64,000 bases of DNA, taken from NCBI GenBank assembly GCA_025517465.1, contig JAOPKE010000009.1:62001-126000 (forward strand), written 5' to 3'. Of the stretch, positions 1,188 to 59,792 are shown piece by piece. Source of the DNA: Halobacteria archaeon HArc-gm2. GTDB taxonomy: Archaea > Halobacteriota > Halobacteria > Halobacteriales > Haloarculaceae. Position 1 is the stretch's first letter; the number at the start of each line of letters is the position of its first letter. Made by a program: the position numbers and the translations under genes. Below the pieces are notes generated by a model that worked only from the letters and a program-made list of their open reading frames with translations, did no database searches and had not been told where the DNA came from.

Positions 1188-1353
1188 GAAAGCCCTCGGC
1201 GGGGTCGGGTCGCGGGGACCACCCTGCGCTCCTCGCTGCGCTGTCGTTCGAAAGACGCTGCGCGTCTTTCGTGATGACGAGAGAGCTTCGCTCTCTCGAA
1301 CCACGGTGCTTGGGGGTCCCGGCTTCCCCGACCCCGCCTCGCCCTTTCAGTCC
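1188..1353 (-). repeat. structured intergenic repeat, locus A left unit (type II)
   Basis: One unit of the dispersed family, read on the minus strand. It begins with TGAAAGGGCGAGG (complement of 1337-1349), has arms GGCGGGGTCGGG and CCCGACCCCGCC that pair perfectly, carries the AAGCACCG box (complement of 1304-1311) and ends in GAGGGCTTTC at 1188. Two extra perfect hairpins lie inside: 1251-1269 (AAAGACGC stem) and 1279-1297 (GAGAGAGC stem). It faces outward from its partner at 1509-1613. No coding gene is credible here. Function is unknown; a structured RNA is my inference. Confidence 0.7.
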
Positions 1354-1508: not shown

Positions 1509-1613
1509 GGAATGAAAGGGCGAGGCAGGCTGAACGAAGCACGGACCCGCAAGCACCGAATGGAGTGAGGCGCGCAGCGTGGTCCGCGCGAGTTCAGCCT
1601 GCCGAGGGCTTTC
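1509..1613 (+). repeat. structured intergenic repeat, locus A right unit (type II)
   Basis: Partner of the unit at 1188-1353, read on the plus strand. It starts TGAAAGGGCGAG, has private arms GGCAGGCTGAAC and GTTCAGCCTGCC that pair perfectly, carries AAGCACCG at 1551-1558, and ends CGAGGGCTTTC at 1613. The flanks of the stem (CGAG on both strands) would place tandem G-A and A-G mismatches next to the GAAAG/CTTTC closing helix. The arm sequence is unlike that of any other copy in the window. Confidence 0.7.
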
Positions 1614-10086: not shown

Positions 10087-10188
10087 GAAATCCCCGGCCC
10101 GCTACACTCCCGCGACTCGTTGCGCTCCTCGTCCTTCGGACTGCGGTGCTTACATCGTCGGGGTTCGTGTAGCGGGCCGCCCCTTTCA
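10087..10188 (-). repeat. structured intergenic repeat, locus B left unit (type I)
   Basis: Minus-strand unit: TGAAAGGGGC (complement of 10179-10188), arms GGCCCGCTACAC and GTGTAGCGGGCC pairing perfectly, AAGCACCGCAG (complement of 10141-10151), the GAGGAGCGCAACGAGTC box, and GGGGATTTC at the outer end, one change from the consensus GGGGCTTTC. Beyond the end the flank reads TGGTTGTTTGCGG on the same strand, close to the flank of the other units. It lies upstream of the divergently oriented ahcY start. Confidence 0.7.
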
Positions 10189-10228: not shown

Positions 10229-10382
10229 TGAAAGGGGCGGCGGGCTCGGCGACGGCGGACCCGACAAGCACCGCAGGCGGAGTCCTCGTGAGCGAAGCGA
10301 ACGAGGGCTCGTCAGAGCTTGCCTCTGACGGCTGCCGAGGAGCGCAGTCGCGGTCCACCGAGTCGAGCCCGCCGGGGCTTTC
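10229..10382 (+). repeat. structured intergenic repeat, locus B right unit (type I)
   Basis: Plus-strand partner of 10087-10188, separated by 40 bases. It starts GGAATGAAAGGGGC, has arms GGCGGGCTCG and CGAGCCCGCC, carries AAGCACCGCAGG at 10266-10277 and the GAGGAGCGCAG box, and ends GGGGCTTTC at 10374-10382, followed by the T-rich TTGTTGTTTGCGG. Two additional internal hairpins are present: CCTCGTGAGCGAAGCGAACGAGG and GTCAGAG-loop-CTCTGAC. The 10.0-10.5 kb gap holds nothing else I recognise. Confidence 0.7.
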
Positions 10383-39787: not shown

Positions 39788-39888
39788 GAAAGCCCTCGGC
39801 CCGCTCGACTCGCGGGACTCGCTGCGCTCCTCGCTAGCGCTGCGGTGCTTGCGTCGTCCGGCGTCGCCGAGCGAGCCTCGCCCTTTCA
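39788..39888 (-). repeat. structured intergenic repeat, locus C left unit (type II)
   Basis: Minus-strand unit: TGAAAGGGCGAGG, arms GGCTCGCTCG and CGAGCGGGCC with one G-U-type position, AAGCACCGCAG (complement of 39840-39850), the full GAGGAGCGCAGCGAGTC box, and GAGGGCTTTC at 39788. The single imperfect pair makes it the least perfect arm in the family. Confidence 0.65.
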
Positions 39889-40068: not shown

Positions 40069-40170
40069 TGAAAGGGCGAGGCGGGCTCCGGGAACCCCGG
40101 TCCCGTAAGCACCGCAGCGTCAGCGAGGAGCGCAGCGGGACCGCGGGACTGGAGCCCGCCGAGGGCTTTC
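40069..40170 (+). repeat. structured intergenic repeat, locus C right unit (type II)
   Basis: Plus-strand unit: TGAAAGGGCGAG, arms GGCGGGCTCC and GGAGCCCGCC pairing perfectly, AAGCACCGCAG at 40107-40117, GAGGAGCGCAGCGGGAC, and CGAGGGCTTTC ending at 40170, followed by the pyrimidine-rich CTTTCTTTGCGG. It is the most compact unit (about 102 bases) and so shows the minimal core. Confidence 0.7.
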
Positions 40171-42555: not shown

Positions 42556-42648
42556 GGGTTGTGGTGGTCGCGGTGCCCGTGAAAGCGTGTCGGTCCTAGG
42601 AGTGAAAGCGATGAACTGGACCGGGAGGGAGACTGCTACAAACAACAA

Positions 42649-42753
42649 GAAAGCCCCCGGACGCTCGGGTCGCGCGCCTCGCTGCGCGCGCTCGTTGCAC
42701 TCGCGTGCTTGCGTCGTCGTGCTTCCCCGAGCGTCCGGCCCCTTTCAGTCCCA
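42649..42753 (-). repeat. structured intergenic repeat, locus D left unit (type I)
   Basis: Minus-strand unit: GGACTGAAAGGGGC, arms CCGGACGCTCGG and CCGAGCGTCCGG pairing perfectly, a slightly changed box AAGCACGCGAG, a GAGCGCGCAGCGAG box, and GGGGGCTTTC at 42649, followed on that strand by TTGTTGTTTGT. It lies upstream of hisA. Confidence 0.7.
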
Positions 42754-42777
42754 CCCCGTGGATCATCCGAACGGGCG

Positions 42778-42895
42778 GGACTGAAAGGGGCGACCGGTTC
42801 GGCGAACCCCGGCGAAGTAAGCACTGCACGGAACGAACGAAGTGAGTGGAGGAAGCGCGCAACGAGTCGCGGGAGCCGAACCGGTCGGGGCTTTC
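42778..42895 (+). repeat. structured intergenic repeat, locus D right unit (type I)
   Basis: Plus-strand unit: GGACTGAAAGGGGC, arms GACCGGTTCGGC and GCCGAACCGGTC pairing perfectly, AAGCACTGCA at 42819-42828, an internal ACGAACGAAGTGAGT hairpin-like word, and GGGGCTTTC at 42887-42895, followed by TTGTTGTCG. Only about 30 bases separate it from its partner, so the inner GGACTGAAAGGGG ends form a near-continuous palindrome. The gap 42556-42991 holds nothing else except the promoter of the next gene. Confidence 0.7.
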
Positions 42896-42960
42896 TTGTT
42901 GTCGTTAGAACCAGCAGTCGCACAGACCCACGAGATTCCAACCCTACTCTCGCCCCGAAG

Positions 42961-42991: not shown

Positions 42992-43708
42992 ATGACTGCG
43001 GACTCACCCATGTCGCGGCTCGAGCGGACCATGGTCGGCCGAGAGAAGTCGACCTATCGCCAGTTCGTCAGGGCCATCACGGTCGTCACCATCGCGCTGG
43101 TGCTGGCCTGGCTGCTCACTCGCTTCGGCGTGGCGGGCCTCGACACCGACCTGGCGCCGCTGTTCGCCACCGCCGCCGGGGTCGCCGTCGCGGCCTACGT
43201 CGTGATGGGGATGGTCCAGTTCGTCGTGCTCGCTCGCGCGTACGACCGCGGGGCGACGGAGGTGGCCCAGACCGCCGAGGAACTCGAGGAAGCCGCCGAC
43301 ACCGTCGCGAAGACGGCGGACGAGCTCGACGAGACCGTCGAGACCGTGGAGAAGGCCGCCGAACAGGTCGACGAGGCCGCCGGCCAGGTCGACCAGAGCG
43401 CGGAGACGGTCGAGGAAGTCGTCGAGCAGGCCGACGAGGTCGCCGCCGACCCCGACAAGGCAGTCGAGGCGAGCGAGCAGGTGAAAGAGGCCACCGAGCA
43501 GGTCGACGAAGTGACCGAACAGGTCGACCAGGCCGTCGAGCAGGCCAGCGAGGCAAAGCAGAAGACCGACGAGGCCAAGGAGACGGCCGATTCGGTCAAG
43601 GAGACCGTCGAGAAAGAGAAAGAACACCTGCCCCAGGCCGAGAAGGGCGACGAAAGCGACGAAACGGACGGTGGGACGGACGACGAAAGTGGTGCGGGCG
43701 GGCGATAG
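42992..43708 (+). CDS. membrane-anchored coiled-coil protein with Glu/Val/Ala repeats
   Basis: A 238-residue protein. Two hydrophobic spans at about 28-48 and 54-75 anchor it. From about 85 to 215 comes a long helix of imperfect repeats such as EQVDEAAGQVDQSAETVEEVVEQADEV and EQVDEVTEQVDQAVEQA, with hydrophobic residues spaced 3-4 apart, predicting a cytosolic coiled coil about 20 nm long. The tail is acidic and Gly-rich. It resembles methyl-accepting or LEA-like helical rods in composition but has no signalling domain. Function unknown; a scaffold or spacer role is possible. Confidence 0.7.
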   Translation: MTADSPMSRLERTMVGREKSTYRQFVRAITVVTIALVLAWLLTRFGVAGLDTDLAPLFATAAGVAVAAYVVMGMVQFVVLARAYDRGATEVAQTAEELEEAADTVAKTADELDETVETVEKAAEQVDEAAGQVDQSAETVEEVVEQADEVAADPDKAVEASEQVKEATEQVDEVTEQVDQAVEQASEAKQKTDEAKETADSVKETVEKEKEHLPQAEKGDESDETDGGTDDESGAGGR

Positions 43709-48840: not shown

Positions 48841-48956
48841 GGACTGAAAGGGGCGGCCGTCTGGACGACGGCGGACGCCGCAAGCACCGCAGGAACGAAC
48901 GCAGTGAGTGACGAGGAGCACAGCAAGTCCCCCGAGTCCAGACGGCCGGGGCTTTC
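48841..48956 (+). repeat. structured intergenic repeat, locus E, solitary unit (type I)
   Basis: The only unpaired unit. It starts GGACTGAAAGGGGC, has arms CGGCCGTCTGGAC and GTCCAGACGGCCG pairing perfectly, AAGCACCGCAGG at 48882-48893 followed by AACGAACGCAGTGAGTG, a GAGGAGCACAGCAAGTC box, and ends GGGGCTTTC at 48948-48956, then AAGTTGTTCGTGG. A TATA-like GGTATAC at 48820-48826 is about 25 bases before TGAAAG, which could be its promoter. That it stands alone shows a single half is a complete unit. Confidence 0.72.

Positions 48957-55959: not shown

Positions 55960-59792
<3,833 letters not shown>

What the first reader, a model, noticed from the sequence alone, without database searches (positions are those of the whole stretch)
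1509..1613. Arms differ in every copy yet still pair
Arm sequences (for example GGCAGGCTGAAC at 1.5 kb, GGCCCGCTACAC at 10.1 kb, GACCGGTTCGGC at 42.8 kb, CGGCCGTCTGGAC at 48.8 kb) have little in common, but in eight of nine units the second arm is the exact complement, and in the ninth it is nearly so. Flanks and boxes stay conserved. Either strong selection keeps a helix while letting its sequence drift, or the arms are copy-specific recognition or guide sequences. The second option would be novel.
Basis: partly seen in the sequence, partly recalled or inferred. Interest (0 to 1): 0.8.

Follow-up and report, generated by a model that had tools for sequence, protein, structure and literature searches.

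The report
Haloarchaeal hairpin repeats with drifting stems
The nine hairpins are copies of a large, apparently undescribed family of structured intergenic repeats in salt-loving archaea, whose stems change sequence but keep pairing because the folded shape is conserved; the arms do not behave like targeting sequences.

Summary
The window carries nine ~100-nt units; a covariance model recovers all nine (E 1.8e-11 to 4.2e-21), and the genome holds about 150-200. Across 42 units from many haloarchaeal genera the stems covary strongly: 289 double-sided changes against 92 in shuffles. At orthologous loci of a sister species (flanks ~91% identical) arms change by compensated pairs, drift through G·U wobbles, or are swapped whole. 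Option 2 (guides) is not supported: no antisense bias, only a weak match excess, a nearly invariant U-A pair inside the arm. Mismatches are strand-biased (G·T 53, A·C 5), so selection sees one strand, most likely as RNA.

New here: units usually form head-to-head pairs of two different subtypes (16/18 and 40/44). The one whole pair folded forms a four-way cloverleaf, and two pairs are inverted between sister species. The family was found only in haloarchaea and has no Rfam match. Best reading: a haloarchaeal counterpart of bacterial REP/BIME repeats with a larger fold. Mobility mechanism and transcription are untested.

The parts
1513..1613 (+). Type-2 unit of the finding: head TGAAAGGGCGAG 1513-1524, arm 1 GCAGGCTGAAC 1525-1535, inner helices and loops, arm 2 GTTCAGCCTGC 1592-1602, closing CGAGGGCTTTC 1603-1613
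   Evidence: 11 of 11 arm positions pair
1188..1349 (-). Type-2 partner unit, head-to-head with 1513-1613 (11-bp arm run); its cap holds a nested two-hairpin insert at 1243-1304
10087..10188 (-). Type-1 unit (13-bp arm run), left half of pair; orthologous unit in G191 has five compensated arm changes
10229..10382 (+). Type-1 unit, right half of pair; missing in G191 with GGG microhomology at the junction
39788..39888 (-). Type-2 unit, the 'ninth' with two G-T wobbles in the arms
40069..40170 (+). Type-2 unit, right half of pair (9-bp run, then one wobble)
42649..42747 (-). Type-1 unit (13-bp run), left half of pair; G191 orthologue shows A-T to T-A and C-G to G-C changes compensated in the partner arm
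42748..42781 (.). Centre spacer of the pair; with both heads it forms the centre stem GCCCCTTTCAGTCCC/GGGACTGAAAGGGGC
42782..42895 (+). Type-1 unit (13-bp run), right half of pair
42638..42906 (.). Whole pair with tails: minimum-energy fold is a four-way cloverleaf (outer stem, left hairpin, centre hairpin, right hairpin); z -8.0 as RNA, -8.7 as DNA for the fold of 42610-42935
48845..48956 (+). Single type-1 unit (13-bp arm run)

Best explanation
The units belong to a multi-copy family of structured intergenic repeats of haloarchaea. Each ~100-nt unit folds, on one defined strand, into a long hairpin: a closing stem (GAAAG/CTTTC), the ~12-bp 'arm' helix, a GAA/GA internal loop, a second variable helix with a fixed C-C or A-C mismatch, a further GAN/GA loop, and an AAGCAC/GCGCA section capped by a variable hairpin. 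Shown: the helices covary, the internal loops do not, and wobbles are tolerated with a strong strand bias. Inferred: selection acts on the folded single strand, more likely RNA than DNA, so arm sequence is free as long as it pairs. Arms also change because units recombine with one another (gene conversion or swapping of whole units) and because hairpins and pairs are lost or inverted. In this genome the units mostly form head-to-head pairs of two different subtypes, and a pair can fold as one four-way cloverleaf. They behave like bacterial REP/BIME repeats: non-coding, without a gene of their own, intergenic, dimeric and expanded in some lineages. How they are copied, and which protein if any recognises the fold, is not known.
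For: Covariation: 97.2% of cells paired against 74.1% shuffled; 289 double-changed cells against 92; score 0.574 against 0.161 shuffled and 0.05-0.10 slid. The closing stem also varies between genomes as GAAAG/CTTTC, CAAAG/CTTTG and CGAAG/CTTCG. Strand polarity: type-2 arms hold G-T plus T-G 53 against A-C plus C-A 5, and G-G 60 against C-C 1 (p 1.7e-11 if cells were independent). Orthologues at ~91% flank identity, 33 shared units: 53 arm positions changed on both sides with pairing kept, 20 wobble-type changes, 38 one-sided losses or gains; mean arm divergence 24%. Copies: at least 147 (G000), 144 (G191), 83-88 (G004, G033), but 11-12 in two congeners. No unit inside a predicted gene; all gene arrangements are used. 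Pairs are heterotypic: 16/18 (9.8 expected, 4/1000 shuffles) and 40/44 (31.4 expected, 2/1000). Type-1 outer tails pair within a pair above re-paired tails. Two type-1 pairs are inverted against syntenic flanks in G191.
Against: No transcript data were available and no conserved promoter is visible next to the heads, so the RNA reading is inferred; single-stranded DNA would also favour G-T over A-C. No clean empty site with a target duplication was found, so active transposition is not shown; gene conversion plus loss could explain the turnover. The Y1 (IS200/REP-type) transposase domain does not track copy number, so the REP analogy lacks its enzyme. Pairing of the type-2 outer tails and of the centre flanks is no better than expected from the conserved boxes. 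A mutational route (template switching that copies one arm onto the other) could add to the complementarity, although it would tend to erase the conserved internal loops.
Confidence: 0.62

Rival explanations
1. The arms are copy-specific guide or recognition sequences, each directed to its own target, and the second arm only masks or presents the guide.
For: Arms differ widely between copies, and exact arm 12-mers occur outside elements 64 times against 34-58 in eight dinucleotide shuffles.
Against: The slight excess lies in coding DNA with equal sense and antisense hits (29/28), as shared base composition would give. Arms contain a nearly invariant U-A pair and vary by compensated single pairs. 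The same arm recurs in several copies.
Confidence: 0.04
2. The folded form that is selected is single-stranded or cruciform DNA, read by a nuclease, transposase or chromosome protein; the elements are DNA-level mobile or structural repeats.
For: Pairs are inverted and hairpins deleted at palindromes; pairs lie between divergent promoters as often as elsewhere; the DNA fold is as significant as the RNA fold; hairpin loops of the nested insert occur in both orientations.
Against: A cruciform exposes both strands and would not give the strong strand bias of mismatches. The U-G cells in helix 37-45 (12 U-G, 0 C-A) are typical of RNA. No Y1 transposase correlation.
Confidence: 0.27
3. The units are transcription terminators: a GC-rich hairpin followed by CTTTC and a T-rich tail.
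For: Tails are 43-45% T in the first 10 nt in this genus; Haloferax volcanii terminates at T stretches ending in C and at some hairpins (PMC7237163); 10 of 21 units in G033 lie between convergent genes.
Against: 16 of 55 classified pairs in the two sister genomes lie between divergent genes, where no terminator is needed, and no orientation preference is seen in tandem contexts of G033 (4 against 4). A terminator needs neither conserved internal loops nor heterotypic head-to-head pairs. Tails in other genera are less T-rich (29%).
Confidence: 0.05
4. Complementarity is a mutational by-product: template switching at quasi-palindromes copies one arm onto the other, with no selection for the helix.
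For: Arms diverge faster (24%) than flanks (9%); double transversions occur at single loci; hairpin deletions and inversions show that palindromes are processed here.
Against: Conserved unpaired loops (GAA/GA, C-C, A-C mismatch, AAGCAC) persist inside the hairpin across genera, and mismatches are strand-biased; copying one arm onto the other would erase both.
Confidence: 0.06

Closest known systems
REP / BIME repeats (GTAG- and CGTC-tagged palindromic repeats of bacteria)
   Same: High-copy palindromes; head-to-head dimers predominate; heterodimers of different stem types; stems vary by complementary residues; G-T pairs in stems read as a sign of RNA (PMC3733652).
   Different: About 100 nt with several helices and fixed non-canonical loops instead of one 5-13 bp stem; no GTAG or CGTC tag in the consensus flanks; found only in haloarchaea; no association with Y1/RAYT-type transposases.
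Small mobile repeats (SMR-A) of Haloquadratum walsbyi
   Same: About 110 bp, terminal inverted repeats, no transposase, no target duplication, tens to >100 copies, inserted in other palindromes (PMC3119063). The ~60-nt nested insert seen inside our units resembles this habit.
   Different: SMR copies are described as highly similar to each other, whereas these units share a fold with variable stems. Sequence identity with HqIRS42/43/55 was not tested.
PATEs and IS200/IS605-type elements
   Same: Haloarchaeal, non-coding, palindromes near the ends (PMC3119063).
   Different: PATEs lack terminal inverted repeats and keep a core between two palindromes; here head-to-head units of opposite polarity; no Y1 transposase link.
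Integron attC sites
   Same: Arms vary while the fold is kept, and one strand is read (own knowledge).
   Different: No attC core boxes seen by eye, no cassette arrays and no integrase family among the tested neighbour genes.

Membership tests
REP superfamilies (GTAG/CGTC) | Terminal unpaired GTAG or CGTC tag | tested here: not met
   Flank consensus is GGGTGGGAC or CCTGGAGGAC before the head and a TGTT-rich tail after it; tag definition from PMC3733652.
REP superfamilies (GTAG/CGTC) | High copy number, intergenic, head-to-head dimers including heterodimers | tested here: met
   At least 147 units, none in a predicted gene, pairs heterotypic 16/18 and 40/44.
REP superfamilies (GTAG/CGTC) | Associated Y1/RAYT transposase (GTAG class) | tested here: not met
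   PF01797 count does not follow unit count: one in G000 (>=147 units), several in genomes without pattern hits, none in some with 12-29 hits.
IS200/IS605 / PATE | Subterminal palindromes of one polarity and a Y1 transposase in trans | tested here: not met
   Paired units have opposite polarity; no Y1 correlation.
SMR-A of Haloquadratum | Sequence relationship to HqIRS42, HqIRS43 or HqIRS55 | not tested
Known structured RNA family (Rfam 15) | Match above a family's gathering score | tested here: not met
   No Rfam match over the units; only tRNAs reached gathering score in the stretches scanned.
Structured RNA or ssDNA element (generic) | Covariation of helices above shuffled and slid controls | tested here: met
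   Score 0.574 against 0.161 and 0.05-0.10.
Structured RNA | Transcribed | not testable with these tools
   No expression data; no conserved promoter next to heads.
Classical MITE | Near-identical copies with target-site duplication | tested here: inconclusive
   No clean empty site found; loci without the element show short or remnant intergenic DNA.
RNA guide elements | Variable segment complementary to targets | tested here: not met
   No antisense bias, only a weak excess over dinucleotide shuffles. Only ~300 kb of the genome was scanned.
Intrinsic transcription terminator | Hairpin plus T-rich tail located at gene 3' ends | tested here: inconclusive
   T-rich tail present in this genus but units also lie between divergent genes.

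The most novel reading that the evidence does not exclude
A selfish structured RNA, or RNA-like single strand, of haloarchaea that spreads without a dedicated transposase, exists as heterotypic head-to-head pairs forming an invertible four-way cloverleaf, and diversifies its stems so that the two hairpins of a pair fold on themselves rather than on each other.
Probability: 0.2. Interest if true: 0.85.

Novelty: new variant of a known kind. Interest (0 to 1): 0.6.

Why it matters
A hairpin family with up to ~150-200 copies per genome, present across many haloarchaeal genera and without an Rfam entry, is a sizeable unannotated part of archaeal intergenic DNA. If the fold is transcribed or bound, it points to an undescribed RNA or to a protein that reads the structure. 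If it is purely selfish, it spreads by a route that the fast turnover between sister species makes testable. The heterotypic pairs and pair inversions also give a natural system for studying how cells tolerate and process large cruciform-forming sequences.

Tried and rejected
Rfam at gathering and permissive thresholds: no match over the units. Y1 transposase correlation: none. Genes flanking singles and window pairs: mostly unrelated housekeeping genes, no shared mobile or defence family. Phage collection: no match; plasmids: the organisms listed are haloarchaea, the matches mostly unannotated. Loose pattern scans of named genomes and viral contigs mostly returned unrelated organisms, judged chance matches. 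Covariance model in ~100 non-haloarchaeal genomes of the phylum: no match. Guide test: a simple shuffle suggested a 3-fold excess that shrank to 64 against 34-58 with dinucleotide shuffles and showed no strand bias. Covariation of the centre stem between partner units: not above the conserved consensus. Literature search by element sequence: no relevant paper.

Full report
OBSERVATION. The pattern TGAAAGGG-N15-35-AAGCAC gives ten matches (nine distinct units) in the window and none in shuffles. A covariance model built from 42 units, four of them from this window, finds exactly those nine, E 1.8e-11 to 4.2e-21. Eight units have exact arm runs of 9-13 bp; the ninth pairs over 11 positions with two G-T wobbles.

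ANATOMY. Two types exist. Type 1 begins TGAAAGGGGC and ends GGGGCTTTC; type 2 begins TGAAAGGGCGAG and ends CGAGGGCTTTC. Inside, mutual information and pair counts give: closing stem GAAAG/CTTTC; arm helix of 13 pairs; loop GAA/GA; a six-pair helix broken by a constant C-C or A-C mismatch; loop GAN/GA; two pairs; an AA/A loop; the AAGCAC/GCGCA section; a variable cap. Conserved flanks are GGGTGGGAC (type 1) or CCTGGAGGAC (type 2) upstream and a T-rich ~14-nt tail downstream; nothing further out is conserved in this genus.

PAIRS. Most units in this genome lie head-to-head. For the pair with tails at 42638-42906 the minimum-energy fold is a four-way cloverleaf: the two tails pair as an outer stem, the two heads pair as a centre hairpin, and left and right units form the side hairpins (z -8.0 as RNA, -8.7 as DNA). 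The GGG/GGG internal loop of a single unit becomes the junction in this fold. Pairs are heterotypic: 16 of 18 type-1 pairs join two subtypes (9.8 expected, 4/1000 shuffles) and 40 of 44 type-2 pairs join different core classes (31.4 expected, 2/1000). Arms of the two partners are less alike than randomly re-paired arms (all 300 shuffles higher), as two subtypes per pair would produce. Type-1 tails match within a pair more than re-paired tails (0.670 against 0.508, 0/300); type-2 tails and both kinds of centre flank do not.

COVARIATION AND POLARITY. On 42 units from many genera the named structure has 97.2% of cells paired (shuffled 74.1), 289 double-changed cells (92) and score 0.574 (0.161; slid 0.05-0.10). 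In genus g16 the closing stem itself is CAAAG/CTTTG or CGAAG/CTTCG. Mismatches are strand-biased: type-2 arms of this genome hold 53 G-T/T-G against 5 A-C/C-A, and 60 G-G against 1 C-C. A double-stranded palindrome would show no such bias, so one single strand is the selected form. Tolerance of G-U favours RNA, but ssDNA is not excluded. Many cells share ancestry, so the formal p values are optimistic; in type 1, where arms are nearly perfect, the bias is weak.

ORTHOLOGUES. Sister genome G191 is syntenic at ~92% identity over 180 kb. Over the loci compared in C18 and C11, 24 units have no counterpart in G191, 28 are present in the same orientation and 5 were scored as inverted. Two type-1 pairs, at C18:144288 and C11:394977, have left and right units exchanged; at the first the tails stayed with their flanks, so the breakpoints lie at the outer ends of the units. 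Of 363 arm positions in shared units, 248 are unchanged, 53 changed on both sides with pairing kept, 20 changed on one side through a wobble, 38 lost or gained a pair and 4 changed on both sides unpaired in one species. Some differences are wholesale replacement by a unit of another core class. At 42.65 kb the arm CCGGACGCTCG is CCGGTCGCTGG in G191, with the partner arm changed to match. Losses look like hairpin deletions: the unit at 10229-10382 is missing with GGG microhomology.

DISTRIBUTION. The pattern occurs in 172 of 293 genomes of the order, 63 of 87 genera, although low counts may include chance matches. With the model, copies are at least 147 and 144 in the two sister species (150 candidates scored), 38, 22, 11 and 12 in congeners, 67-88 in G104, G268, G004 and G033, and none in ~100 non-haloarchaeal genomes of the phylum. 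In genus g16 the unit is the 3' part of a longer repeated element (~245 nt) with further variable hairpins upstream, so the unit is probably a module.

CONTEXT. No unit lies inside a predicted gene (own codon-usage gene finder). Pairs occur between convergent, divergent and tandem genes. In G033 10 of 21 are between convergent genes, and there is no orientation preference in tandem contexts. Window neighbours are mostly housekeeping genes (methionyl-tRNA-synthetase-like C-terminal part, adenosylhomocysteinase, HisA, HisB, MFS transporters). This fits insertion or survival wherever it is harmless better than a fixed regulatory role.

GUIDE TEST. Exact arm 12-mers match 64 places outside elements in ~300 kb. 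Eight dinucleotide shuffles give 34-58 matches; the observed ones are in genes (57 of 64), 29 sense and 28 antisense. This does not support guides.

MECHANISM. Shown: conserved fold, strand polarity, compensated drift, unit swapping, pair inversion, loss, lineage-specific expansion. Inferred: selection on a folded single strand (RNA about twice as likely as ssDNA, my judgement); recombination among the many copies reshuffles arms; palindrome processing inverts and deletes. Unknown: copying mechanism and binding protein.

COMPARISON. The behaviour closely parallels bacterial REPs as surveyed in PMC3733652: head-to-head dimers, heterodimers, complementary stem variants, G-T pairing. The unit fails the REP tag and transposase tests, so it works like a REP but is not filed as one. 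SMRs and PATEs of Haloquadratum (PMC3119063) are the nearest haloarchaeal elements described. I found no paper describing this family in the open-access library searched, which omits most subscription journals.

Noticed in passing
window 1243-1304, and the caps of many of the 27 longer units in several genera: A ~60-nt two-hairpin insert (GTGGTTCG-hairpin-GTCATCAC-hairpin-CGAACGAC) sits inside the units. Its stems vary but pair, and both the insert and its hairpin loops occur in either orientation (for example GCGAAGC against GCTTCGC), as if loops flip.
   Followed up: partly
G000 C18:144288-144546 and C11:394977-395240: Whole type-1 pairs are inverted relative to syntenic flanks between two sister species.
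   Followed up: partly
L402-L421 (genus g16): The unit is the 3' module of a ~245-nt element beginning GCGGTGGCGCGCC, with further hairpins carrying tandem GA loops and a conserved GAGGCTGGGGAGGCGTGAGG stretch; 83-88 units per genome.
   Followed up: partly
L394, L395, L418: Another repeat upstream of some g16 elements, containing GCTCCTCGAAAAACCTGGAGGGAAAAA.
   Followed up: no
L026 and L101 upstream of the unit: Two units share 93% identity that includes the 3' end of a gene and stops exactly at the unit's CTTTC end, suggesting a recombination boundary there.
   Followed up: no
window 55960-59792: Two adjacent large ORFs share a 300-nt repeat (57475 and 59472, 78% identical); probably paired ABC half-exporters, judged from the sequence only.
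   Followed up: no
window 43010-43705: A protein with a repetitive 21-base coding period beside an element pair; weak MCP-signal-domain match below cut-off, likely coiled coil.
   Followed up: no
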